Position numbers and translations under genes: made by a program. The notes under the pieces are model-generated. The model did not search any database. It was not told the origin of the DNA and worked only from the letters and a program-made list of their open reading frames with translations. DNA of 46,097 nucleotides from Pseudomonas avellanae BPIC 631 (GTDB taxonomy: Bacteria; Pseudomonadota; Gammaproteobacteria; Pseudomonadales; Pseudomonadaceae). Below, piece after piece: positions 6,960-21,060 of this stretch (positions are counted from its first letter, which is position 1; each line of letters starts with the position of its first letter). The stretch is taken from assembly GCF_000444135.1 (NCBI RefSeq), contig NZ_ATDK01000006.1, forward strand, positions 1 through 46,097, read 5' to 3'.

Positions 6960-7613
6960 TCAGGCGTTCAGCGAACTCAGGTAGTCGCCAAAACCGCCTC
7001 TGGCCTTGGAGTCGAGGCGCGTGCTGGTGGTCACTCTGGGGCGACAGCTCCAGGCGATTCGCGCGCCGATCAGCTCCAGTTGGCGCACCAGATGAACATC
7101 TTCGTGGCAGGTCAGTGATGGAAACCCGCCCGCGCTGATGTAGGCAATCGAACTCACGCCCAGATTGGCCCCGTGAATGTGTCGATGACCATCACGTTGC
7201 TGGTAATGCTGGAGATAAGCCGCCTGGGCGGCGGCCGAGATGTCCTTGTTCCAGTCTCCGGGTGTGACGGTTCCGCATACCGCATCGGCATCCAGCGCCA
7301 ATTGCTCGGCCAGCCAGTCACTGGCCACGCTGCTGTCGCCATCGGTGCATGCCAGCCAGCGTGCGCCTCTGTCGAGCAGGAACGCAGCACCTTCAGCGCG
7401 TGCCTGTCCGACATTGCGTGCCGCCACTTCGAGAATCATCACGCCGTGCGCACGTGCGATGTCAGCCGAGCGATCGGTGCAACTGTCGAGAACCACCAGC
7501 ACCTCCACCCGCTCGCCCTTGAGGGCCGGGTGCGCGGCAGCGTGTTTTATCGTTTCGAGACACAAATCGAGTAGCTGCTCTTCATTGTGCACCGGGATCA
7601 ATATGCCGATCAT
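6960..7613 (-). CDS. Family 2 glycosyltransferase
   Basis: A 217-residue GT-A fold glycosyltransferase. It opens IGILIPVHNEEQLLDLCLE, the GT2 nucleotide-sugar strand. It continues with VLVVLDSCTDRSADIA and has a D-G-D at residues 91-93 (CTDGDSSV) in place of the metal-binding DxD. There is no membrane segment, so it is a cytoplasmic enzyme acting on a soluble or membrane-presented acceptor. It is the last gene of the long run that starts at glgA, and its first 32 bases lie within the methyltransferase gene. GT2 enzymes move sugars onto lipids, glycans or small molecules; the acceptor here is unknown. Partnership with the deacetylase, methyltransferase and dehydrogenase-like genes suggests a decorated sugar conjugate (inference). 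Confidence 0.85.
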   Translation of the reverse strand: MIGILIPVHNEEQLLDLCLETIKHAAAHPALKGERVEVLVVLDSCTDRSADIARAHGVMILEVAARNVGQARAEGAAFLLDRGARWLACTDGDSSVASDWLAEQLALDADAVCGTVTPGDWNKDISAAAQAAYLQHYQQRDGHRHIHGANLGVSSIAYISAGGFPSLTCHEDVHLVRQLELIGARIAWSCRPRVTTSTRLDSKARGGFGDYLSSLNA

Positions 7614-8208
7614 CGGAGAATTCCTGTTCTGCCACGGAGGTTCCATCACGACTCCACAGGTCCAGCAGAAAATCCTGTTCGTGATGACTGAAAAGTCGGT
7701 GCATGGATAACCGTTCGGCCAGGATCGCATGGACCGCCTGCGCGTTCAGCGGGCAGCCCTCGATGTCCGGGCGCCAGTGACAGGCGAGCAGTTGGCCATC
7801 CGGCGACAGCGCCGCCAATGCGCAGTCGATCAGGCGATGCAGGTCAGCGGCGTCCAGGTAATAACCCAGTTCACTGAAGACGATCAGATCAAACTGCCCC
7901 GCCGGCCATTGTTGCGGCAAGCGCGCTTGCACAACCCTGGCATGGGGCACATCTGCCAGACGCTGGCGCGCCAGTTCGACTGCCTGGGTCGATGTGTCAC
8001 AACACATCAGCGTGTCGCAGCGTTCGGCAAGGTCGGCACTGAGTTCACCATTGGCGCAACCGGGCTCGAATATCGCGCTGTAGCGCTCGCGGGGCAGGGC
8101 GGCGAGCGTCAGGGCGCGCTTGCGTCGCTCGTACCAGCGCTGTTTGAACGCCCACGGGTCGTCGTTGTTGCGGAATAACTCATCGAAATAGCTGTCGGCG
8201 ACGCTCAT
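7582..8208 (-). CDS. Class I SAM-dependent methyltransferase (NodS-like)
   Basis: A 208-residue Rossmann methyltransferase. Motif I is FEPGCANGELSADLA at about residues 47-61, followed by an acidic strand end (LMCCDTSTQAVELARQRL) and FDLIVFSELGYYLD as the motif IV region. The N-terminal YFDELFRNNDDPWAFKQRWYERRKR resembles the NodS-type start; NodS N-methylates a deacetylated chitooligosaccharide. Its ATG overlaps the PIG-L deacetylase stop (ATGA). In other bacteria PIG-L deacetylase and class I methyltransferase domains occur fused in one protein, which supports consecutive action: N-deacetylation, then N-methylation of the exposed amine. This order is inference by analogy with NodB/NodS. Confidence 0.85.
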   Translation of the reverse strand: MSVADSYFDELFRNNDDPWAFKQRWYERRKRALTLAALPRERYSAIFEPGCANGELSADLAERCDTLMCCDTSTQAVELARQRLADVPHARVVQARLPQQWPAGQFDLIVFSELGYYLDAADLHRLIDCALAALSPDGQLLACHWRPDIEGCPLNAQAVHAILAERLSMHRLFSHHEQDFLLDLWSRDGTSVAEQEFSDDRHIDPGAQ

Positions 8209-8978
8209 GTGAACACCACCTCAAAGGGTTGCAGCAGGCGCTCCAGAACAGCCTCGGGCAGTACCGGCGACAGACCGATGGCCGGGTCGCCCTGCAACTG
8301 ACTGGTAAAAGCCCGGGCCGCACTGCGTTTGTGCGCGAGGGTCATGGGGTCCAGCAACAGTTTGCGGGCGCGATCCCATGGCAGGCGTTCGTCCTCGGGG
8401 TCGGCCCAGTGCCAGGCCCAGATCGGTACTTCGTGAAGCTGAGCGCCTGTTTTGGCGCAGGCTCTGGCACTGGCGCGGCCGACGGCTTCATGATCGGGGT
8501 GGCCGTCGCCTGCCCAAGTGGCAAACACCACATCGGTAGGCCCCAACTGCTGGGCAAGAAACTCCACCAGCCGGTCTTCATGTTCGCCAAGCGTGCCATC
8601 TGCAAAGCCGCCTCTTGTCCAGGCGAGCTGTTCAAAGGGGATTTCGAGAAGGTTCAGGGCTTGCGCGCTTTCCTGAGGGCGGTTTTCGGCCAGTCGCTCG
8701 ACAGGCCAGAGCGCTGAGCCCGGATGGCTGGCGGTGCCGTCGGTCACCGAAATCAGCAGCAGGTTGCGTTGCAGTTGCGCCAATTGGCTCATCAGGCCGC
8801 CGCAGCCGAGTATTTCATCATCCGGGTGCGGTGCGATGATCACCGCCCGGCAGTTGGGCGGCACCAGCAGGTCGGCAGTGATCGCCGGCAATGCGCGCAG
8901 TCTGGCCGAGGCATTCCAGGCGGCCAGCGGTGTGCCTTGGTCCGATGCGTTGTCGCTCACCACAAAGGCTTCACTCAT
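8205..8978 (-). CDS. PIG-L family zinc deacetylase
   Basis: A 257-residue LmbE/PIG-L deacetylase. The zinc and catalytic motifs are intact: APHPDDE at residues 49-55 and GHPDHEA at 159-165. Family members remove an N-acetyl group from a GlcNAc-containing substrate, as in mycothiol, bacillithiol, GPI and some antibiotic pathways. Here the substrate is unknown, and no inositol or malate glycosyltransferase of the thiol pathways is present. It starts 26 bases after the dehydrogenase-like gene and its stop overlaps the methyltransferase start. A Trp-rich stretch, WAWHWADPEDERLPW, is at about 187-201. Family is certain. Confidence 0.92.
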   Translation of the reverse strand: MSEAFVVSDNASDQGTPLAAWNASARLRALPAITADLLVPPNCRAVIIAPHPDDEILGCGGLMSQLAQLQRNLLLISVTDGTASHPGSALWPVERLAENRPQESAQALNLLEIPFEQLAWTRGGFADGTLGEHEDRLVEFLAQQLGPTDVVFATWAGDGHPDHEAVGRASARACAKTGAQLHEVPIWAWHWADPEDERLPWDRARKLLLDPMTLAHKRSAARAFTSQLQGDPAIGLSPVLPEAVLERLLQPFEVVFT

Positions 8979-9004
8979 GACCGTACACTTTCATACATGC
9001 TGTC

Positions 9005-10014
9005 TCATAATGACCAGGGCCGGACAGCCTGCGACTGCTTGCCAGCCAACTGGCCCAGCGCCGCCAGGTCCTGCTCGGCGTGGCTCTGCCGTAAAAAGAC
9101 CGGCAGGTCGGCAATCAATCGGGCGAAATGCGGGTCCTTGCAGTAGGGGCCTGCGCCCACTGCGCGACCTACATGTTGAATGACCAGCTCTGCGGATTGC
9201 TCGACATAGGCGCGGCAGCGCCGGGCCAGAATTTCGGCGGGTTCCGTCGGCGCCTGATCCAGGTGCACGGCAGCGGCACGCAGGACGTCAATTGCAGCGT
9301 GCAACGCCACGTCTACCGCGCCCAGATGGGCGAGGGCGTGCGGCTCTTCACGTTTGCCGATGTGCGCAAGCAGGCGCTGCGCAATGGAGCGGGACGCGCC
9401 ATACCAGCAGGCTGCGATGCCGATGCCGCCGTGCCAGAAACCGGGTCTTTGCAGGTAGCCGCCGGGTGCGCCGACAAGCTGCCCGTCGGCATTCTCGAAC
9501 ATCACCTCGACGCTGCCCGTCGCGCCCATACCCACTGCACGCCAGCCATCGTTGGTGATGTGCACACCGGGTTGATCGAGGCGCACCGCAACCAGTTGCT
9601 GGCGATGCGCCTCGTCCCACACGGTGATCAATGCGTGGCTCAGGGCATTGGCGCCTGAGCACCAGGCCTTGCGGCCGTTCAGGCGAAGCGAATCGCCCTT
9701 GCCGCTTAACGTCACCCGTGCCTGCGGCGGCTCTGCCGCCCACATGCCCCAGGTGCTGAATTGTTCGGGGGGCGGGGCACCCAGCTCAGCCATGATCGCC
9801 AACGCATCTGTGTGCCCCTCGTACAATTTGCACAACCCCAGGTCGTGGCCTGCCACGCAGGCCAGCGCCTGCCAGCGCTCAAGAGTCTGACCGCGGGCAG
9901 GCAACGGGAGTTGATCCAGACCTTCATTGACCAGTGCCTGCAAGCACTCGCCCAGCGCATGCGTATCGGCATAGCCATGCTTGCGCCAGTCGAGAAACTC
10001 GCTCAAGGCATCAG

Positions 10015-10018
<4 letters not shown>
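9005..10018 (-). CDS. Acyl-CoA dehydrogenase-like flavoprotein, divergent
   Basis: A 337-residue protein with the overall plan of acyl-CoA dehydrogenases: a helical N-terminus, a middle beta domain and a helical C-terminus. The middle domain carries FSTWGMWAAEPPQARVTLSGKGDSLRLNGRKAWCSGAN, the FAD-contact strand, and GWRAVGMGATGSVEV, where the family has its GMRAT-like segment. It is some 40 residues shorter than typical family members, and I cannot place the usual catalytic glutamate, so the substrate may be neither a CoA ester nor a fatty chain. Its ATG overlaps the glgX stop (ATGA), which ties it directly to the glucan/trehalose operon. It could desaturate or oxidise an acyl-, amino- or sugar-linked substrate made by its three downstream neighbours. 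Fold likely; reaction unknown. Confidence 0.75.
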
Positions 10019-12198
<2,180 letters not shown>

Positions 12199-12293
12199 GG
12201 TGCCTTCCTGACGTCGAATGATTTTCTGAGCGGCCAAGACCGCTATCGAAGCCGCAGGGGCTCCAACATTGAAGATAAAGTGTGGGGTTGCAG

Positions 12294-12325
12294 CAGGTCC
12301 CGTCTCTGGATCAGAGCGGGACCTG
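12294..12325. promoter_or_regulatory. Strong intergenic hairpin upstream of glgX
   Basis: CAGGTCCCG then CTCTG at 12294-12308 pairs with CAGAG then GGGACCTG at 12312-12325, a near-perfect stem of about 13 pairs with one bulge and a tiny loop. It sits in the 159-base gap between the DUF2934 gene and glgX in the middle of the operon. No T-tract follows on either strand, so simple termination is unlikely. A processing or stability element that sets GlgX output relative to TreY is plausible. Confidence 0.5.
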
Positions 12326-12357
12326 TAACAATGGACTGGCACCGGGCCAGAAGAGTT

Positions 12358-12771
12358 TCAAGAATTTGACGGCTTGCGCGGCTTCTTCGCAACAGCAGGT
12401 TTGGCAGGTGCATCTTTTTTGGAAGGCGCATCGGACGCCGCCGCAGTTGCCGGTTTTGCAGCCGGCTTGGCCGCAGGCTTCGGCGCTGCTTTAGGCGCTG
12501 CCTTGGGTTTGCTGTCGGCCGCAGGCTTTGGCGCAGGAGCCGATTTGGCCACCGGCTTGGCCGCGCCTTTGGCAGGCGCCTTGGCGCTGTCTACCTCAGG
12601 CAGTTTCGGCTTGCTGGATTTGCGCACGGTGGACTTGTTGGGTGACAGTGCTTCGGCCTCTGCCAGCTTGCGCGCCATTTCCCAGTGACGCTCATCATGG
12701 CCGGAGGGTTTACCTTCCGATTCCCAGATCTGATAGGCAAAATCGCGAATTCTTTTTTCGTCTGCACTCAT
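12358..12771 (-). CDS. DUF2934 protein with Lys/Ala/Pro-rich tail
   Basis: A 137-residue protein. Residues about 5-40 form a DUF2934 domain (IRDFAYQIWESEGKPSGHDERHWEMARKL). The rest is a low-complexity basic tail, about 90 residues built from Ala, Lys and Pro, with KPAAKPAAKPA-type repeats like those of histone H1-like bacterial proteins. Such tails bind nucleic acid or polyanions non-specifically; the function of DUF2934 is unknown. The gene lies 17 bases downstream of treY in the same direction, with GGGAGT before its ATG. It follows that it is expressed with trehalose synthesis, perhaps in osmotic or desiccation stress (inference). Tail length is likely variable between strains because of the repeats. 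Confidence 0.85.
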   Translation of the reverse strand: MSADEKRIRDFAYQIWESEGKPSGHDERHWEMARKLAEAEALSPNKSTVRKSSKPKLPEVDSAKAPAKGAAKPVAKSAPAPKPAADSKPKAAPKAAPKPAAKPAAKPATAAASDAPSKKDAPAKPAVAKKPRKPSNS

Positions 12772-12788: not shown

Positions 12789-15572
12789 TTACGTAGTTTG
12801 AATAAGCAAATTGACGGAAAATCTTTCAAGCGCTGCACTGAGCGGTATTTCCCGATCAGTCATTACGACAACGTCAGAAAAGAGCCCCTTCCAGTCAGAA
12901 TCGGAATCGGCAAACGGCAGCATTATCCGCGTGTCGCCCCAATTGGCAGCATTAATCAATGGAGTTTGTGCGGTACCCAATAGTTCACTGCTTATGCGTG
13001 GGACTACGATGACAGCGCGCACTCCTTGCGTCTCCCGGGCAAAGGCCATCACCTGATCGGCGTGGCTGCCCTTTATCTCAAGGGGCTGGTAGCTCCCCTC
13101 GCTGAACAGCGCCGGGTACTGGGCCCGCAGGTTCAGTACCTTCGAGATCAGCGCCTGTTTGATCCGGCCATCCTGCCAGTTGCTCAGCAGGTCGGCAGCG
13201 CTGGCGTCCTGCGCCAGCGCCTTCTGCCGGGCTGCATAGTCCACCGGCCGGCGGTTGTCCGGATCCACCAGGCTGAAATCCCAGAACTCGGTGCCCTGAT
13301 ACAAATCGGGCACGCCGGGCACGCTCAAGCGTAGCAAGGTTTGCGCCAGACTGTTGAGCGCACCAGCGGTGGCAATACGGTTGGCCGTTGCACTCAGGGA
13401 CTGACGCAGCGCAAGCGCTTCTGGCGCCAGCAGCAGGCGCTCCAGAAACTTGCGGCAGGCCGTTTCGTAAGGCTGGTTAGGCGCGCTCCAGCTACTTTGC
13501 AGCTTGGCTTCGCGCAGGGCTTTTTCCTGCCACTGGACCATACGCTTGGCGTAGTCCTGATGGGCTTGTTCGCCTTCCAGGCTGAGCGGCCAGCTGCCCA
13601 GCAGTGCCTGATATAGCATCAACTCGTCGCCCGCACTGATAGTGGGCTCGTCACCCTTCAGCGGCACGGCCAGCTGTCGCCAGCGCTCCACCTGTTCGGC
13701 GTACCACGGCGCGCATTCACTCAGTACCGCAAGGCGTGTACGGGTGTCTTCGCCGCGTTTATGGTCATGGGTGGCGGTGGTCAGCAAGTTGTCAGGAAAT
13801 TTTTCCAGACGCTCCAGGCAGACTGCGTGGAAGTCCTCCACCGGGGCACTGAAATGCTGCGGATGAAAGCCCACATCGTTGCGCGACAGCAGCACCGCAG
13901 AGCGGTAGAAAGATGTGTCCTCGACCGACTTGGCGGCGACAGGGGAGGTCAACTGCTGGAAACGCACGCAAGCATTCTTGTACAGCTTGCGCAGGTGCCC
14001 GCGCTGCAATTGTCGCCATGATTCGCCACCCAGCCAGCGTGCCAGGTAATCGAGCACCGGCCAATCGCCTTCGTTCAGCGTGGTACGAGCGCCTTCCATG
14101 GCCTGCTGGAAATAACGATCATCTTGCTCAGAGCGGCCGCACACCGAAATGTAAGTGCGGTAGATCGGGAAATTCACCACCAGCGCCAGCAAGGCCCGGC
14201 GAATCGCCCCCAGTGTCAGGTCGCGGCTCATCAGGTCGCTGCGTGCCACTTGCAGCAATGACTGCGCGACGTTCTCGAAATCGCCCGCCAGAGTGCCGTG
14301 CAGCACCAAGTCACGGGCCACCAGCACTTCCTGATCAAAGTCAGCGGTACGCTCTGACAGTCGGCTCCACAGCTCGCCCAGCGGCTCTTTGCCCTTGGGG
14401 TCGTGTTGCAGCAACGACACCTGGTTCATGAATTCGTAACCGGTCGTGCCGTCTACGCTCCAGTCCTCGCGCAGCGGCTCATCCGGGCCGAGGATTTTCT
14501 CGACGAAGATCGGCAAGTGTTCGATTTGCGCCTCGGCAGGGCGCTGCTTCAGCAGGCTTTTGACCCGGCGATGCAACTTGCGGCCATAGCCGCGCGGGTT
14601 GGCCAGACCGTCAATGTGATCGATACGCAGCCCGTCAACCAGGCCGTCCGCGATCAACTGAAAGATTTTGCCGTGAGTGGCCTCGAAGACCTGCGGCCGC
14701 TCGACGCGCAAGCCGCCCAGCTCGTTGATATCGAAGAAGCGCCGCCAGTTGATGTCATCACCGGCGGTGCGCCAGCTGGCCAGACGATAATGCTGACGCT
14801 CAAGCAACTGATGCAGACGCTGGAAACCCTCCGGTTTGCTGGAGTCGAAGTGCGCAAGAATCTGCTCGATAGCCTGCGAAACCTGCGCATCCTTGGCCAG
14901 TTCAGCCAATTCGGCCCTGGCCTGACGTGCGCGTTCATACGCTTGCGGGTATTGCGCCAGCGCCGTGAAGCGCTGCGCCATCTCCTTCAAGTGCGGCTGT
15001 TCCACTGCCTGCAATAACAAGTCATACGTCAGCGGGCAGATCGGGAAGTGATGCTGATAGTGCTCGATGTAAAACGCGCCGCGCTCGGCATCGAAGCGCA
15101 AGGGGATTTCTCCGGCCTGCAGCACGGTGCCGTAATCACTGCTCAGAAACGGCAGCAGCAATTGGCCTTCCAGCAGCGGGTCCGGGGAGTTCCACTGGAT
15201 GTCGAAGAAGTCTGCGTAAGGGCTGCGACGTCCCCATTCCAGTAGGTCCAGCCACCACGGGTTATCGGCGCCGCCGACGGCCATGTGGTTGGACACGATG
15301 TCGAGGATCAGGCCCATGCCGTGTTCGCGCAGGGTCGATACCAGGCGCAACAGGGCAGGTTCGCCGCCCAGCTCCGGGTTGATGACGGTCGGGTCGACCA
15401 CATCGTAGCCATGCATGGAGCCAGCGCGGGCCTTGAGCAACGGCGACGCGTAGATGTGACTGATGCCCAGACTAGCGAAGTAGGACACCAGTGGCACGGC
15501 GTCGTCAAGGGTGAAGTCTTTATGAAATTGCAGGCGCTGGGTGGCGCGCAACGGCTGTAATGGACGGTTCAT
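12789..15572 (-). CDS. treY: Maltooligosyl trehalose synthase TreY
   Basis: A 927-residue GH13 enzyme that rearranges the reducing-end alpha-1,4 bond of a maltooligosaccharide to alpha-1,1, giving a maltooligosyl trehalose for TreZ. Family signatures include the N-terminal VSYFASLGISHIYASPLLKA, GSMHGYDVVDPT, LILDIVSNHMAV, GLRIDHIDGL with the nucleophile Asp, and VPDLYQGTEFWDFSLVDPDNRRPVDY near the C-terminus. The length is at the upper end for the family, as in other pseudomonads. Its ATG at 15572 overlaps the malQ stop by four bases. Confidence 0.96.
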   Translation of the reverse strand: MNRPLQPLRATQRLQFHKDFTLDDAVPLVSYFASLGISHIYASPLLKARAGSMHGYDVVDPTVINPELGGEPALLRLVSTLREHGMGLILDIVSNHMAVGGADNPWWLDLLEWGRRSPYADFFDIQWNSPDPLLEGQLLLPFLSSDYGTVLQAGEIPLRFDAERGAFYIEHYQHHFPICPLTYDLLLQAVEQPHLKEMAQRFTALAQYPQAYERARQARAELAELAKDAQVSQAIEQILAHFDSSKPEGFQRLHQLLERQHYRLASWRTAGDDINWRRFFDINELGGLRVERPQVFEATHGKIFQLIADGLVDGLRIDHIDGLANPRGYGRKLHRRVKSLLKQRPAEAQIEHLPIFVEKILGPDEPLREDWSVDGTTGYEFMNQVSLLQHDPKGKEPLGELWSRLSERTADFDQEVLVARDLVLHGTLAGDFENVAQSLLQVARSDLMSRDLTLGAIRRALLALVVNFPIYRTYISVCGRSEQDDRYFQQAMEGARTTLNEGDWPVLDYLARWLGGESWRQLQRGHLRKLYKNACVRFQQLTSPVAAKSVEDTSFYRSAVLLSRNDVGFHPQHFSAPVEDFHAVCLERLEKFPDNLLTTATHDHKRGEDTRTRLAVLSECAPWYAEQVERWRQLAVPLKGDEPTISAGDELMLYQALLGSWPLSLEGEQAHQDYAKRMVQWQEKALREAKLQSSWSAPNQPYETACRKFLERLLLAPEALALRQSLSATANRIATAGALNSLAQTLLRLSVPGVPDLYQGTEFWDFSLVDPDNRRPVDYAARQKALAQDASAADLLSNWQDGRIKQALISKVLNLRAQYPALFSEGSYQPLEIKGSHADQVMAFARETQGVRAVIVVPRISSELLGTAQTPLINAANWGDTRIMLPFADSDSDWKGLFSDVVVMTDREIPLSAALERFSVNLLIQTT

Positions 15573-17647
15573 CGGTCACGCTCCGCAGCTTGCAGCCGGG
15601 ATTGGGACAGCAATTCCAGTCGTCGAGCAGCATGTGGATGATCAAGCAGGGAAGCAGCAGTGCCGGGCAGGCGCCTGCGCCAGTTCGGGTGGCTGTCGAT
15701 GGTGCCGGGCAGATTGGCCTGCTCCTCGACACCCAGTGCATCCTCCATTGGCAGCAGCACCAGCGGCGCACGCGTGTGGCCCAGGTAACGGACACTCGCG
15801 TCGATAATCTGCTCCGGGTCTTCGCTGTCGGCGGGCATCTCTTCGATGTTCTGGCTCAAGGCGCGACGCAGGCTGTGGTATTCACGTACACGTTCATCAC
15901 GCCATTGGGCTTCGTGCTGTTCATCGATGTGACCCAGGCGGGCGTTCCATTCGATGTCCAGCTCACTGAGCCAGCCCGCCAGCGTCGGCAGGTCATGCGT
16001 GCTCGTGGTGGCCAGGGCTTGATCGGACCAGTCGAGGATCGGTTTGAACTGGCCGTTGTTCTGTTCGAACAACAGTACGCGCATGCCCAGAATCGCTCGC
16101 GCGCTGAGTTTCTCGCTGAGCCCTTCAGGAACGGTGCCGAGATCTTCGCCCAGCACGATTGCCTTATGCCGCCAGGATTCAAGGCTCAGCAGGCGCAACA
16201 TGTCGTCGAGCGGGAAGTTGAGGTAGGCACCCTCGCTGGGCGGCGAACCCTGCGGGACAACCCACAAACGCTGCAGCCCCATGACGTGGTCGATGCGCAA
16301 CCCGCCTGCATGGGCGAAGTTGGCACGCAGCATCTCGATGAATGCCCGAAACCCGTTGCGCTTGAGGCCATCTGGTGAAAAAGCCGAGATGCCCCAGCTT
16401 TGTCCGGCGCGGTTGAGGATATCGGGCGGCGCGCCTACGGTCAGGGCCGAGAGCAACTCATCCTGACGGCTCCAGGCCTGGCTGCCGGCACCATCGGCAC
16501 CCACGGCCAGGTCGGCGATCAGGCCGATGCGCATGCCGCTGCTGCGCGCGGCAACCTGAGCACGCTCAAGGCCACGGGCAATCAGCCATTGGGCGAAGGC
16601 ATGGAAGCTGATCTGCTCGCCGTGTGTTTCGGCAAATTGCGCGACAGCCTGGCTGCGCGGGTCCTTGAACGTTTCCGGCCATTCGTGCCAGTTTTCGCTG
16701 ATACCCAGCGTGGCCGATTCGGCGCGCAGGGCTTCGAAGCGACAATGATTTTCCAGCGCTTCACCACCGCTGTGGCGGAAACTGTTGAAGTCTTCGTGCA
16801 GTGGATGCGCGCCGGTGCTGAACACGTCGTAAAGGGCGTGCAACGCTTTCCATTTTGCGTTGGCTGCGCTTGGCCAGTCGATCAAGGACAGTGTTTCCAG
16901 GCGCGCCATTTCTTCACCTACGCCTGCATCTTCGATTGCCTGGCGCCAGGCGCGCTCGCCGAGAATTGCACCCGGCGCGGCGTACAGGCTGTTAAGGAAC
17001 AGCCGGCTGGAAGGCGAGTACGGACTGTAACGGTGTGGATCGTTGGCGAACATGGCGTGAATAGGGCTGATGCCCAGCGCATCGGCTCCGCGCTCACCGG
17101 CCGAACGCACCAGCATTTCCAGTGCCTCGGTGTCGCCGAAGCCTCCATCACCGTCGCGGCGCAGGCTGTAAAGCTGCGCCGTCAGGCCCCAGCCGCGCGG
17201 CACTGGCGCATCGACAGCCATTGCCATGCTGAAGCAGGTTTTCGGTGCAACAGCGATGGTCAGATGCTGGTCGGCAATTTCCAGCTGTTGATAGCCGACG
17301 GGCGCAAGTGCCGGCAACTCGCCGCTTGCGGTCAGCGTGGCGTCGATCGACGAGCCGTCTTCAAGGTGCAGCGTGAACGGTGTTTGCGCCGAAAACCATT
17401 CCGACAGGTCCAGATTGCTGTCCTGATCGACCGTCAGCAATGGCGGGGCGCTTGCGCCATGACGGGCGAGCTGCAGCTTTTGCAGGCTGGCATCAATGGC
17501 CTCGCCGTTTTCGGCAGGATAGCCCAAGGCTTCCAGAACCTTGCGCAGCACATCAGGGCTGACGACCTGTGGCCTCGCGTTGGCATCGACCCAGTGCACC
17601 GACAGTCCTGCCTCGGTCGCAAGCCGCTCCAATTGCTCATTGTTCAT
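15569..17647 (-). CDS. malQ: 4-alpha-glucanotransferase (amylomaltase) MalQ
   Basis: A 692-residue GH77 disproportionating enzyme that transfers alpha-1,4-glucan segments between chains and so adjusts maltooligosaccharide length. Motifs seen are VGAPPDILNRAGQSWGISAFSPDGL, GGLRIDHVMGL (nucleophile Asp), VLGEDLGTVPE (acid/base Glu) and STHDLPTLAGW (third Asp). ATG at 17647 with TGGAGGAACAGG upstream is favoured over the open frame from 17668. The start lies inside the last codons of treZ (11-base overlap). Its place between treZ and treY suggests it recycles glucose and short dextrins left by trehalose release, which TreY cannot use. Confidence 0.95.
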   Translation of the reverse strand: MNNEQLERLATEAGLSVHWVDANARPQVVSPDVLRKVLEALGYPAENGEAIDASLQKLQLARHGASAPPLLTVDQDSNLDLSEWFSAQTPFTLHLEDGSSIDATLTASGELPALAPVGYQQLEIADQHLTIAVAPKTCFSMAMAVDAPVPRGWGLTAQLYSLRRDGDGGFGDTEALEMLVRSAGERGADALGISPIHAMFANDPHRYSPYSPSSRLFLNSLYAAPGAILGERAWRQAIEDAGVGEEMARLETLSLIDWPSAANAKWKALHALYDVFSTGAHPLHEDFNSFRHSGGEALENHCRFEALRAESATLGISENWHEWPETFKDPRSQAVAQFAETHGEQISFHAFAQWLIARGLERAQVAARSSGMRIGLIADLAVGADGAGSQAWSRQDELLSALTVGAPPDILNRAGQSWGISAFSPDGLKRNGFRAFIEMLRANFAHAGGLRIDHVMGLQRLWVVPQGSPPSEGAYLNFPLDDMLRLLSLESWRHKAIVLGEDLGTVPEGLSEKLSARAILGMRVLLFEQNNGQFKPILDWSDQALATTSTHDLPTLAGWLSELDIEWNARLGHIDEQHEAQWRDERVREYHSLRRALSQNIEEMPADSEDPEQIIDASVRYLGHTRAPLVLLPMEDALGVEEQANLPGTIDSHPNWRRRLPGTAASLLDHPHAARRLELLSQSRLQAAERDR

Positions 17648-19451
17648 CCTGTTCCTCCAGAACATCACTTGCTGTCAGGCTGACAATGGCCGTGTAAGGA
17701 TTGAGGATTGCGTCCCGGGAAAGTTCGGACGATTTCGCAGCGCTGGAGAAAATCTCCCGTGCACGTGGCGCAGGCGTGGTTGTAACGGCCTGCTCACTGA
17801 GGTTCAGGTCGATACGCAGCACACTGCCGTCGCCCAGCGTCCAGCGTGCACTGACCGCCTTGTCGCCAAGGATCTCGGTGTTGAGGAAGCGCGCACCCGG
17901 CAGGCGCGGGACGATTTCCTGATGACGCAAGGCCAGCAATTGTGCGTAGTAATCGACCCATTGACGGTGTTCCAGGCCTTTCTCGGTCTGCAGGTCGGTC
18001 GCCGAGAACGCCGGGCGGGAGGCCTCGAAGGTCTTGATGTCGTTGGGATCAGGAATGTGCTCGCGCTTTTCCGGGTCGGCAAACGCTGCGAAGTCGGCGA
18101 ACTCCTTGCGACGCCCTTCACGCACGGCGTCGGCCAGCTCGCCGTGGTGGCTGGTGAAAAACAGGAAAGGTTCGCTCGCGGCCCATTCATCGCCCATGAA
18201 CATCAGCGGAATCATCGGCGAGAGCAACAACAGCGCAGTCGCGGCCCTGAGCGCATCGGGGGAACAAAGTTGTGGCAGACGCTCGCCGAGCGCCCGGTTG
18301 CCGATCTGGTCGTGGTTCTGCAGGAACAGCACAAAGGCGGTCGGTGCAAGGTGGCCGCTGGGCTCGCCTCGGGTGTGCCCATGGCGCGTTTGTTCGCCCT
18401 GGTAGACAAAGCCTTCGCTGAGCAGGCGCGCAAGTTTGTGGGTCGGCTTTTTGGCGAAGTCCGAGTAATAGGCGTCCGTTTCGCCGGTCAACAGCACATG
18501 CAGCGTGTTGTGCCCGTCATCGTCCCATTGCGCGTCGAAACCCTTGTCCAGCAGGCTGGCCTGATTGAACTCATTTTCAAGGTTCAGCCACACATGCCTG
18601 GACGGTTCGATCCGCTCGCGCACGCGGGTGGCGAACTCGGGCAGGAAGGTCTCGTCGCGAATGGCGTGGACGGCGTCCATGCGCAGCCCGTCGATGCGGT
18701 ATTCGAGCAGCCACATAAGGGCGTTGTCGACGAAGAAATCCCGCACTTGCGGGCGCCTGAAATCGATCGCGTCGCCCCACGGTGTGTGCAGGTCGCTGCG
18801 GAAGAATTCCTTGGCGTAACTGCCCAGGTAATTGCCGTCCGGACCGAAGTGGTTGTACACCACGTCCAGAATCACCATCAGGCCAACGCCATGAGCGGTG
18901 TCGATCAAGTGTTTGAGCTGTTCGGGAGTGCCGTATGAAGACTGCGGGGCATAGTGCAGAACGCCGTCATAGCCCCAGTTGCGATCACCGGGGAACTGCG
19001 CCAGCGGCATCAGCTCAATGGCGGTGATGCCCAGCGCGGCGAGGCGCGCAAGATACTTCTCGACTGCTGCATAGCCACCCATCGCGCCGACGTGCAGCTC
19101 ATAGATAACAGCCTCATGCCACGGACGACCGTTCCATGCAGTGTTTCGCCACGAATAGGCCTGGGGGTCGACCACGATGCTTTGCGAATGAACGTCATCG
19201 AACTGCGCACGCGATGCCGGGTCTGGCACTTCGAGCGTATGGTCGACTTTGAAGCGGTATCGAGTACCCGCCTTGCAGCGGGCCTCAAGCACGAACCAGC
19301 CTTCTGGCTGGGGCAGCATGGCCAGAGACTGGCCATCCTGCAGTTCGACACTTACGTAGGAGGCATCCGGTGCCCAGAGGGCAAACCGGGTGTGTTCAGG
19401 GTCCAACAAAACGGCGCCGTGGCGCCAGTTATCGTCTGTACGCAGGGGCAT
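17637..19451 (-). CDS. treZ: Malto-oligosyltrehalose trehalohydrolase TreZ
   Basis: A 604-residue GH13 enzyme that cleaves the alpha-1,4 bond next to the trehalosyl end made by TreY and frees trehalose. An N-terminal CBM48-like domain (FALWAPDASYVSVELQDG) is followed by the barrel: ELHVGAMGGY, LDVVYNHFGPDGNYL, GLRMDAVHAI with nucleophile Asp259, LENEFN with acid Glu292, and LQNHDQIGNRALG with the third Asp. ATG at 19451 follows AAGGATTAG; the gene lies 19 bases after glgA and overlaps malQ. The reaction and pathway are certain from the motifs and neighbours. Confidence 0.96.
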   Translation of the reverse strand: MPLRTDDNWRHGAVLLDPEHTRFALWAPDASYVSVELQDGQSLAMLPQPEGWFVLEARCKAGTRYRFKVDHTLEVPDPASRAQFDDVHSQSIVVDPQAYSWRNTAWNGRPWHEAVIYELHVGAMGGYAAVEKYLARLAALGITAIELMPLAQFPGDRNWGYDGVLHYAPQSSYGTPEQLKHLIDTAHGVGLMVILDVVYNHFGPDGNYLGSYAKEFFRSDLHTPWGDAIDFRRPQVRDFFVDNALMWLLEYRIDGLRMDAVHAIRDETFLPEFATRVRERIEPSRHVWLNLENEFNQASLLDKGFDAQWDDDGHNTLHVLLTGETDAYYSDFAKKPTHKLARLLSEGFVYQGEQTRHGHTRGEPSGHLAPTAFVLFLQNHDQIGNRALGERLPQLCSPDALRAATALLLLSPMIPLMFMGDEWAASEPFLFFTSHHGELADAVREGRRKEFADFAAFADPEKREHIPDPNDIKTFEASRPAFSATDLQTEKGLEHRQWVDYYAQLLALRHQEIVPRLPGARFLNTEILGDKAVSARWTLGDGSVLRIDLNLSEQAVTTTPAPRAREIFSSAAKSSELSRDAILNPYTAIVSLTASDVLEEQDEQ

Positions 19452-19470: not shown

Positions 19471-21060
19471 TTAGTTGCTGGTCATGCTCACGTTTTTCTT
19501 CAACAGGTCGCGATAAAGCTCTGCGTAGGGCTCCACTGCCTGATGCCAGTTGAAGGGGGCAGCCATTGCGCGGCAGCGCATGGCATTGAGCAGTTCCGGG
19601 TGAGCGAAGACCTGAAACGTGCGGTTCAGGGCTTCGGTATAGCTTTCGACGGTTGATTCATTGAACAGAAAGCCGGTAACGCCATCCTCGATGGTGTCCG
19701 CCAGGCCGCCGGTGTTGCGGGCTACAGGCAGCGAGCCGAAACGCTGGGCGTACATCTGGCTCAAGCCGCAGGGTTCATAGCGCGACGGCATCAGCAGAAA
19801 ATCACTGCCGGCAAACATGCGTCGTGCATCGGTTTCGTTGAAGCCGATACGCACACCGATACGGCCGGGAAAGCGTGCCGCCAGTGCGCGCATGGCATCT
19901 TCTTCTTCTGGCTCACCGCGGCCGATGATTGCAATCTGCCCACCGTTGTTGACTATGTGCTCGGCCACGCCAATGGTCAGGTCCAGGCCTTTCTGATAAA
20001 CGAGGCGCGAAACCACCGCGTAAAGCGGCCCGCTGGAGGCGTCCAGCTCAAACAGCTCGCGGACGTAATCGGCGTTGATTTCCTTGCGCGTCCATTCATT
20101 GGGCGCGAAGTGACAGATCAGGTGTTCGTCAGTGGCGGCGTCCCAGCTTTCATCGATACCGTTGGGGATGCCGCTGAGCTGGCCTTTGTCGGCCTTGCTC
20201 TGCAAAAAGCCCTCAAGGCCGCAGCCGAATTCAGCTGTGGTGATTTCCCGGGCGTAGGTGGCGCTGACCGTGGTGATGTGGTTCGCGAACGCCATGCCGG
20301 CTTTGATGAACGACAGCTTGCCGTAAAATTCCATGCCTTCCGGGGTGATCGCCTCATCCGGGATGCCCAGTTCACGGCTCGACGCAGTGCTCACGGTGCC
20401 TTGATAGGCCAGGTTGTGAACTGTGAAAATACTCGGCGTGGACTGCCCGCGCCAGTGCATGTAAGCCGGCGCCAGCCCCGCAGGCCAGTCGTGGGCGTGA
20501 ACCAGTTCAGGGCACCACTGGCTTTTCACTTCGCCAGCAGCGAACTCGGCAGCGGCCAGGCCCAGACGCGCAAAACGGATGTGGTTATCGGACCAGTCGC
20601 GGCCATTAGTGTCAGCGTAAGGCGTGCCTTCGCGCTCGTACAATTCAGGGCAGATCAGCACGTAGATGACCAGGCCATCTTTCATGTCCATACGCCCGAC
20701 CTTGCAGGGCGGCAGTGCAGCATGCCCGCCCAGCTGGCTGATGATATGGATCGGGTTGCCGCTGTTTATCACTTGCGGATAACCAGGAATCAGAACGCGA
20801 ACGTCGTGCAGGTGGCGCATGGCGCGTGGCAGTGCGGCAGACACATCGCCCAGCCCGCCGGTTTTCACCAGATCGGCCAGTTCGGAGGTCACGAACAGCA
20901 CTTTGCGCCTGTTGACCTGAGACAGGGTCGGTTGAACGGTCGAGGTCGGCAATTGCAGCGAAGTAACGCTCTTGGCAGCAAAGATCGGCAGATGAGTCAG
21001 CTCGCCAACTGGCTGGTTAAAACTCTCTCCCTTCTGGGTTTTGACAGCAGCGCTAATCAT
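19471..21060 (-). CDS. glgA: Glycogen synthase GlgA
   Basis: A 529-residue GT5 glycosyltransferase that extends alpha-1,4-glucan from a nucleotide-glucose. The substrate-binding KTGGLGDV is at residues 66-73, later than in E. coli, because about 50 extra residues precede the conserved VLFVTSEL strand. Other motifs are PELVHAHDWPAGLAP, SRLVYQKGLDL and MPSRYEPCGLSQMYAQRFG. ATG at 21060 has AGGGGAAA upstream. It heads the minus-strand run, so its promoter in 21061-21300 probably drives much of the operon. No glgC lies in the window. In pseudomonads the glucan is thought to come largely from the GlgE route, which leaves open whether GlgA uses ADP-glucose. Confidence 0.95.
   Translation of the reverse strand: MISAAVKTQKGESFNQPVGELTHLPIFAAKSVTSLQLPTSTVQPTLSQVNRRKVLFVTSELADLVKTGGLGDVSAALPRAMRHLHDVRVLIPGYPQVINSGNPIHIISQLGGHAALPPCKVGRMDMKDGLVIYVLICPELYEREGTPYADTNGRDWSDNHIRFARLGLAAAEFAAGEVKSQWCPELVHAHDWPAGLAPAYMHWRGQSTPSIFTVHNLAYQGTVSTASSRELGIPDEAITPEGMEFYGKLSFIKAGMAFANHITTVSATYAREITTAEFGCGLEGFLQSKADKGQLSGIPNGIDESWDAATDEHLICHFAPNEWTRKEINADYVRELFELDASSGPLYAVVSRLVYQKGLDLTIGVAEHIVNNGGQIAIIGRGEPEEEDAMRALAARFPGRIGVRIGFNETDARRMFAGSDFLLMPSRYEPCGLSQMYAQRFGSLPVARNTGGLADTIEDGVTGFLFNESTVESYTEALNRTFQVFAHPELLNAMRCRAMAAPFNWHQAVEPYAELYRDLLKKNVSMTSN

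What the first reader, a model, noticed from the sequence alone, without database searches (positions are those of the whole stretch)
6960..10018. Four-gene tail on the glycogen/trehalose operon: dehydrogenase-like, PIG-L deacetylase, methyltransferase, glycosyltransferase
Seen: four genes follow glgX on the same strand with ATGA overlaps (10015-10018, 8205-8208), a 26-base gap and a 32-base overlap. All catalytic motifs that can be checked in the PIG-L, methyltransferase and GT2 proteins are intact. Known: PIG-L enzymes N-deacetylate GlcNAc-type substrates, and PIG-L and class I methyltransferase domains occur fused in other bacteria. Inference: the genes form a pathway that transfers a sugar (GT2), deacetylates it (PIG-L), methylates the amine (as NodS does) and oxidises or desaturates a linked group. 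The result would be a modified sugar conjugate whose synthesis is tied to alpha-glucan/trehalose metabolism. I know of no named product.
Basis: partly seen in the sequence, partly recalled or inferred. Interest (0 to 1): 0.72.

Follow-up and report, generated by a model that had tools for sequence, protein, structure and literature searches.

The report
Stress-linked amino-sugar modification cassette
Four adjacent genes in a Pseudomonas genome recur together in many unrelated bacteria, in part of them beside trehalose, DNA-repair or catalase genes, and are predicted to make an unidentified, chemically modified amino sugar that would help cells survive stress.

Summary
In detail: four same-strand genes follow glgX with the stated overlaps. 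They are not a Pseudomonas oddity. In 398 Pseudomonadota genomes drawn evenly, 29 besides the window's own carry the first gene's product; a NodS-like methyltransferase lies beside it in 29 of 29, PIG-L in 25, a GT2 in 23, against 1, 0 and 0 of 40 random windows. The set also occurs in Actinomycetota, Deinococcota and Cyanobacteriota, and the four proteins diverge in parallel (rho 0.84-0.92). Neighbours vary: glgX/treY, otsA/otsB, ligD/ku, catalase. So it is a portable cassette, often among stress genes, not a fixed part of alpha-glucan metabolism; outside the Pseudomonas family the trehalose link is not significant (4 of 23 against 1 of 30). The 'dehydrogenase' has the full fold, but 27 of 27 cassette members lack the catalytic glutamate, which argues against desaturation. 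Best reading: GT2 adds an N-acetyl sugar, PIG-L deacetylates, the NodS-like enzyme methylates the amine, the flavoprotein oxidises; all chemistry is inferred. Ten literature searches found no description of the set.

The parts
9005..10018 (-). ACAD-fold flavoprotein (337 aa; flavin binding inferred from the fold); catalytic Glu of true acyl-CoA dehydrogenases replaced, LRQ-S motif in its place
   Evidence: PF02770 34.6 bits; AF2 pLDDT 91.4
8205..8978 (-). PIG-L family (LmbE-like) deacetylase (257 aa), zinc-site motifs present
   Evidence: (PF02585 84.1 bits)
7582..8208 (-). NodS-like class I SAM-dependent methyltransferase (208 aa); near-identical solved fragment 4isc
   Evidence: (PF05401 56 bits)
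6960..7613 (-). GT2 glycosyltransferase (217 aa), DxD and ED motifs present
   Evidence: PF00535 50.4 bits; AF2 pLDDT 94.5
10015..12342 (-). glgX, glycogen debranching enzyme (context; start codon not settled, NCBIfam match begins at residue 77)
   Evidence: TIGR02100 1096.6 bits
12358..12771 (-). small DUF2934-like ORF (137 aa) between treY and glgX (context)
   Evidence: a relative in the same slot of L080 matches PF11154; the window ORF itself was not scanned
12789..15572 (-). treY, malto-oligosyltrehalose synthase (context)
15569..17647 (-). malQ-like 4-alpha-glucanotransferase (context; below the curated cut-off)
17637..19451 (-). treZ, malto-oligosyltrehalose trehalohydrolase (context)
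19471..21060 (-). glgA, glycogen synthase (context; first gene of the run)

Best explanation
The four genes are a conserved cassette, found on chromosomes and plasmids, that likely builds a stress-associated amino-sugar conjugate: the GT2 is predicted to attach an N-acetylated sugar to an unknown acceptor, PIG-L to remove the acetyl group, the NodS-like methyltransferase to methylate the freed amine, and the ACAD-fold flavoprotein would oxidise the product rather than desaturate an acyl-CoA. Shown here: gene order and conservation, parallel divergence, varied and often stress-type neighbours, zinc-site and GT motifs, and absence of the dehydrogenase glutamate. Inferred: substrates, the order of the steps, N- rather than O-methylation, oxygenation of the amino sugar as the flavoprotein's job, and a protective role. 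In the window the cassette forms the tail of the glgA-treZ-malQ-treY-glgX run, so it is probably transcribed with trehalose synthesis; elsewhere the same cassette sits behind otsA, glgA or ligD.
For: Co-occurrence: 29 unbiased loci (398 genomes drawn evenly from the phylum; 20 of 212 genera positive, own genus included): MT 29/29, PIG-L 25/29 (L163 at only 26 bits), GT2 23/29 (18 over 200 bits, five at 40-87); random windows 1/40 (26 bits), 0/40, 0/40. Order ACAD-PIGL-MT-GT2 in 14 of 29, GT2-ACAD-PIGL-MT in 6. Distance matrices of the four proteins agree in the 85 of 129 loci where all four score over 60 bits (Spearman 0.84-0.92; permuted maximum 0.33). Other phyla: Kitasatospora, Pseudonocardiales MAG L056, Deinococcus radiodurans (three of the four), Nostoc. 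Deacetylation then N-methylation: NodS is the top NCBIfam model for 4 of 4 MTs (65.8, 86.7, 57.8, 79.6 bits), and NodS acts after a deacetylase on amino sugars (recalled). Flavoprotein: the profile search ranks TdsC (7e-13), MsuC (4e-11) and DszC (6e-11) above proteins named dehydrogenases (5e-9 and weaker), with the nitrososynthases DnmZ, KijD3 (named) and 3mxl also found; Glu slot empty in 27/27. A review (PMC7347517, passages) reports a putative acyl-CoA dehydrogenase, AlnG, proposed to act in an N-hydroxylation. Stress setting: any listed neighbour 16/29 against 3/40, a list drawn up after neighbours had been seen.
Confidence: 0.42

Rival explanations
1. The cassette tailors a cell-surface polysaccharide or glycolipid (exopolysaccharide, LPS-type or membrane glycolipid) rather than making a free small molecule.
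For: In alphaproteobacterial-type loci the core is joined by further glycosyltransferases: Novosphingobium L182 catalase-GT4-GT-GT-ACAD-PIGL-MT-GT, and GT4/GT2 families by Pfam. GT2 fold neighbours include surface-polymer enzymes such as TarS, TarP and RmlT.
Against: In gamma- and betaproteobacteria the set is mostly the four genes alone, and no polymerase or flippase is named in the feature tables; most other neighbours are unnamed and were not tested for such functions.
Confidence: 0.27
2. The product is a modified trehalose or alpha-glucan oligosaccharide: the GT2 uses trehalose, maltose or a glucan end as acceptor.
For: glgX lies directly upstream in 47 of 129 loci and otsA in 4 (the 129 are not an even sample); the cassette sits between otsA and otsB in Comamonas and behind glgA in L166. 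Different trehalose or glucan genes (OtsAB, TreYZ/GlgX, GlgE) are joined, and the label needs at least 8 changes on the tree, although starred branches force only 1.
Against: 20 of 29 unbiased loci show no trehalose or alpha-glucan gene within 8 kb; 11 of 129 loci, most of them P. putida-type, sit behind ligD instead.
Confidence: 0.14
3. The flavoprotein is a true acyl-CoA or acyl-ACP dehydrogenase and the cassette makes an acylated, desaturated glycolipid, in the manner of Nod factor-type lipochitooligosaccharides.
Against: Catalytic Glu absent in 27 of 27. Acyltransferase, ACP and ETF partners were not searched for.
Confidence: 0.09
4. The genes are merely co-regulated stress genes, not steps of one pathway.
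For: The neighbours are mixed stress functions, and a core gene is missing in some loci.
Against: Tight order with overlapping start and stop codons in the window, parallel divergence, and conservation as a block while the surroundings change.
Confidence: 0.08

Closest known systems
Nod factor synthesis (NodC GT2, NodB deacetylase, NodS N-methyltransferase)
   Same: A GT2, an amino-sugar deacetylase and a NodS-related methyltransferase act in one pathway (roles of NodC, NodB and NodS recalled); NodS is the closest NCBIfam model for all four MTs tested.
   Different: The deacetylase is PIG-L, not the NodB fold (recalled); the MT is far below the NodS cut-off (65.8 against 300 bits); an ACAD-fold flavoprotein is present. 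Relatives of NodA were not searched for.
Mycothiol and bacillithiol synthesis (GT plus PIG-L deacetylase MshB or BshB)
   Same: A glycosyltransferase followed by PIG-L deacetylation of a GlcNAc conjugate (recalled); BshB models match weakly.
   Different: GT2 instead of a GT4 enzyme (recalled); no cysteine ligase is named in the feature tables; a methyltransferase and a flavoprotein are added; BshB1 41.8 bits against a cut-off of 182.5.
Nitrososynthases (DnmZ, KijD3, 3mxl) and the DszC/TdsC/MsuC monooxygenases
   Same: ACAD fold; DszC-type proteins are the best-scoring solved structures by profile, and the nitrososynthases are found too.
   Different: HTLHD motif absent, own signature [KR]-x-x-E-x-H and RQ; a shorter protein (337 aa against chains of 395-454 aa).
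glgA-treZ-malQ-treY-glgX operon of Pseudomonas syringae DC3000 (PSPTO3125-3130)
   Same: The same run precedes the cassette in the window.
   Different: The published deletion ends at glgX (PMC8982409, passages); genes beyond it are not mentioned in the passages seen.

Membership tests
Acyl-CoA dehydrogenase | N-terminal helical, middle beta and C-terminal helical domains | tested here: met
Acyl-CoA dehydrogenase | Catalytic Glu in the YEG segment (or the helix-G alternative) | tested here: not met
   27 of 27 cassette members have S, P, A, H or Q there; of 7 dehydrogenase-type paralogues of the own genome 5 have E, one D, one A with the helix alternative (my reading of the alignment; roles recalled)
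Acyl-CoA dehydrogenase | Oxidation of acyl-CoA or acyl-ACP | not testable with these tools
   needs an enzyme assay
DszC/SfnB-type two-component flavin monooxygenase | C-terminal HTLHD-type motif | tested here: not met
   RQ-S/P/A/H/Q in its place in 27 of 27; the SfnB paralogue L235 of the own genome has HTLHD
DszC/SfnB-type two-component flavin monooxygenase | SfnB equivalog score | tested here: not met
   49.1 bits against a cut-off of 430.9, though it is the only NCBIfam model matched
DszC/SfnB-type two-component flavin monooxygenase | Flavin reductase partner | not tested
   no reductase search was made
PIG-L (LmbE-like) deacetylase | Pfam PF02585 above the gathering score and zinc-site motifs | tested here: met
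   84.1 bits against 28.2; H51, D53, D54, H160, D162, H163 invariant in the 6 rows
BshB bacillithiol deacetylase | Equivalog score | tested here: not met
   41.8 against 182.5 and 35.3 against 195.25 bits
NodS | Pfam NodS PF05401 | tested here: met
   56 bits against 24
NodS | NCBIfam NodS equivalog | tested here: not met
   65.8 against 300 bits; 57.8-86.7 in three relatives
NodS | N-methylation of a deacetylated chitooligosaccharide | not testable with these tools
   needs an enzyme assay
GT2 glycosyltransferase | PF00535 plus DxD and ED motifs | tested here: met
   50.4 bits against 23.3; D91, D93, E171, D172 invariant in 31 of 31
General-stress regulon of alphaproteobacteria (EcfG) | EcfG-type promoter GGAAC-N15..18-[CG]GTT upstream of the cassette | tested here: inconclusive
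   2 of 13 alphaproteobacterial-type loci (L170, L180) in the 500 bases examined per locus; control density 7 in 340,000 strand-bases of 10 random windows; motif taken from the sites printed in PMC6599016

The most novel reading that the evidence does not exclude
An undescribed, horizontally carried biosynthetic system spread over at least four phyla makes an N-methylated and N-oxygenated amino-sugar conjugate as a desiccation or oxidative-stress protectant, and its flavoprotein founds a new catalytic class within the acyl-CoA-dehydrogenase fold.
Probability: 0.22. Interest if true: 0.82.

Novelty: new variant of a known kind. Interest (0 to 1): 0.58.

Why it matters
If the reading holds, many soil, plant-associated and desiccation-tolerant bacteria share a stress metabolite that, as far as the searches here show, has not been described, and its gene set is small enough to express whole. 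It would also add an oxidative reaction to the acyl-CoA-dehydrogenase fold that current annotation hides under the name 'acyl-CoA dehydrogenase', and give a function to a block that recurs beside trehalose, end-joining and catalase genes.

Tried and rejected
Fusion evidence: open frames of 1067, 816 and 1057 aa around the flavoprotein in G542, G465 and G482 were checked for a GlgX-flavoprotein fusion; GlgX lies there in another frame, so they are open read-through, not fusions. The 779-aa D. radiodurans protein has an extra N-terminal 400 aa, which matches neither alphaproteobacterial-type neighbour tested, nor a Pfam family above its cut-off (best Glyco_hydro_53, E 0.012, 15.1 bits against 24), nor a solved structure (best E 0.8). 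Fold search to tell dehydrogenase from oxygenase: no discrimination. GT2 fold search for donor or acceptor: mixed surface-glycan enzymes, no conclusion. Viral contigs: none of 50 pattern matches encodes a relative. AlgU/RpoS motifs upstream of the window run: none found in 740 bases; the sigma-70 and terminator scan found no more than shuffles. The second PIG-L of the own genome (L002, 504 aa) lies on contig C229, where no match to the cassette flavoprotein was found; other partners were not searched for there. Literature: ten searches gave no paper on the set. Seen as passages only: PMC8982409, PMC6599016, PMC10651043, PMC7347517; PMC8084333 and PMC11046441 were searched for terms without a hit (of the latter only the first 300,000 characters are held); all other papers as listings.

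Errors of mine put right: alignment A1 lacks the window protein's first residue. The first active-site alignment used wrong open frames for several comparison proteins and was replaced, which used 14 of the 36 A6 rows, 13 further cassette rows and 11 paralogues of the own genome. The gene caller failed on low-GC loci (L037, L164) and missed the flavoprotein in L160 and L169, so the counts were made on six-frame open frames. The list 'any listed neighbour' was chosen after seeing neighbours, so its p-value is optimistic; its seeds come from loci outside the 29 counted. In the tree, 16 near-duplicate rows of 129 were dropped, and many long branches meet.
Full report
What is there. Four genes on the - strand follow glgX in the window: a 337-aa protein with the acyl-CoA-dehydrogenase (ACAD) middle domain (9005-10018), a PIG-L deacetylase (8205-8978), a NodS-like methyltransferase (7582-8208) and a GT2 glycosyltransferase (6960-7613). 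Upstream lie glgX, a DUF2934-like ORF, treY, a malQ-like gene, treZ and glgA. The genome belongs to the P. syringae group (best ACAD relative 98% identical, named from P. syringae pv. actinidiae), and a fragment of the methyltransferase has a near-identical solved structure (4isc).

Is it a unit? Yes. An even draw of 398 Pseudomonadota genomes gave 30 with the ACAD-like protein at E<=1e-30, in 20 of 212 genera, the window's own included. Stretches of up to 8 kb on each side of the other 29 were fetched. The methyltransferase is present in 29 of 29 (same strand in all), PIG-L in 25 of 29 (L163 at only 26 bits), GT2 in 23 of 29 (18 over 200 bits; five alphaproteobacterial-type loci at 40-87 bits, one of them on the other strand); in 40 random 17-kb windows of 20 of the same genomes the counts are 1 (26 bits), 0 and 0. 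The order ACAD-PIGL-MT-GT2 holds in 14 of 29 and GT2-ACAD-PIGL-MT in 6; the other 9 lack a member or have another order or strand. In 80 named loci found by ACAD patterns, at 60 bits or more the methyltransferase is present in 79, PIG-L in 65, GT2 in 68, and all four in 54. Pairwise distances of the four proteins agree across the 85 of 129 loci that hold all four (Spearman 0.84-0.92, permuted maximum 0.33). Parallel divergence is also expected of any vertically inherited neighbours, so it supports but does not prove one pathway. The distribution is patchy: 22 of 36 genomes of the own genus and 0 of 21 others of the order in a kin sample (strong matches), 33 of 148 in the family.

On plasmids, the ACAD-PIGL-MT block occurs in Pandoraea, Comamonas, Acinetobacter, Kitasatospora, Bradyrhizobium, Sulfitobacter, Komagataeibacter, Novosphingobium and Nostoc, in Deinococcus radiodurans with a helicase gene on the other strand between PIG-L and MT, and in Cupriavidus without PIG-L in the slot. 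The GT2 is on the other strand in Bradyrhizobium, Komagataeibacter and Nostoc, split over two frames in Pandoraea, and not found in the D. radiodurans locus. Methylobacterium L178 (plasmid) and Janthinobacterium L059 have the ACAD-like gene alone.

Where does it sit? The surroundings change while the block stays. Directly upstream on the same strand, among 129 loci: glgX 47, ligD 11, otsA 4, treY 2 (in truth glgX loci whose open frame reads through), catalase 1, glgA 1, none of the listed families 63. In Comamonas it lies between otsA and otsB; in Acinetobacter near otsBA and catalase; in Bradyrhizobium near DUF72, ATP-dependent ligase, Ku and LigD. Trehalose or alpha-glucan genes lie within 8 kb in 9 of 29 unbiased loci against 1 of 40 random windows (37 bits; p=0.001), but 5 of the 9 are in the window's own family; without it the figure is 4 of 23 against 1 of 30 (p=0.10). 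DUF421 is 4 of 29 against 0 of 40 (p=0.03); end-joining genes (2 of 29 against 0 of 40) and catalase (3 of 29 against 2 of 40) are not significant alone. On the ACAD tree the trehalose label needs at least 8 changes, though strongly supported branches force only 1. I read this as a portable cassette often placed among stress genes. In Sphingomonas melonis the treY/malQ/treZ/glgX cluster, Ku and glycosyltransferase genes depend on the stress sigma factor EcfG (PMC6599016, passages); whether those glycosyltransferases belong to this cassette was not tested. In Azotobacter vinelandii GlgX, MalQ and TreZ are reduced in an algU mutant (PMC10651043, passages); the cassette is not mentioned in the passages seen.

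The other three. PIG-L and GT2 carry their motifs; no BshB or glycosyltransferase equivalog model reaches its cut-off. NodS is the best NCBIfam model for the methyltransferases from the window, L170, L036 and D. radiodurans, always far below cut-off. A deacetylase followed by a NodS-like enzyme suggests N-methylation of the freed amine.

Exceptions. 15 of 80 named loci lack a cassette PIG-L: Paraburkholderia, Burkholderia, Achromobacter and Cupriavidus loci, and L059. Cupriavidus L034 has a distant PIG-L nearby (34.5 bits). In the five unbiased genomes concerned (four without a cassette PIG-L, and that of L163) a PIG-L exists elsewhere in each, in one at only 36 bits (base rate 7 of 14 control genomes). 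Alphaproteobacterial-type loci often use other glycosyltransferases.

Literature. Ten searches of the held library gave no description of the set; subscription journals are mostly missing there. The P. syringae DC3000 deletion of this operon covers PSPTO3125-3130 and ends at glgX (PMC8982409, passages).

Verdict. A real and widespread cassette without a description in the papers searched; the chemistry is a reasoned prediction.

Noticed in passing
L149:5083-5847 and second PIG-L genes in other P. fluorescens-group loci: A second PIG-L paralogue follows the cassette in many P. fluorescens-group loci; in L149 the zinc motif reads PHPGDE instead of PHPDDE, so that copy may be non-catalytic. Some such loci (for example L150) show no GT2.
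   Followed up: partly
L177:6786-9125: The D. radiodurans ACAD-like protein carries an extra N-terminal stretch of about 400 aa with no clear family, and a helicase gene on the other strand separates PIG-L from the methyltransferase.
   Followed up: partly
L033:9227-9950: The GT2 gene on the Pandoraea vervacti plasmid is split over two frames and is not in the record's gene table; the other three genes are annotated as whole.
   Followed up: no
L043: In Pseudomonas anatoliensis about 5.5 kb, with a gene of about 1190 aa, lies between the ACAD-like gene and the PIG-L gene.
   Followed up: no
L184: On an Acinetobacter soli plasmid typed as mobilizable the cassette and otsA lie near IS5/IS1182 and IS66 family elements.
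   Followed up: no
window 12358-12771: DUF2934-like ORF with an Ala/Lys/Pro-rich tail between treY and glgX; the same slot is kept in many Pseudomonas loci.
   Followed up: partly
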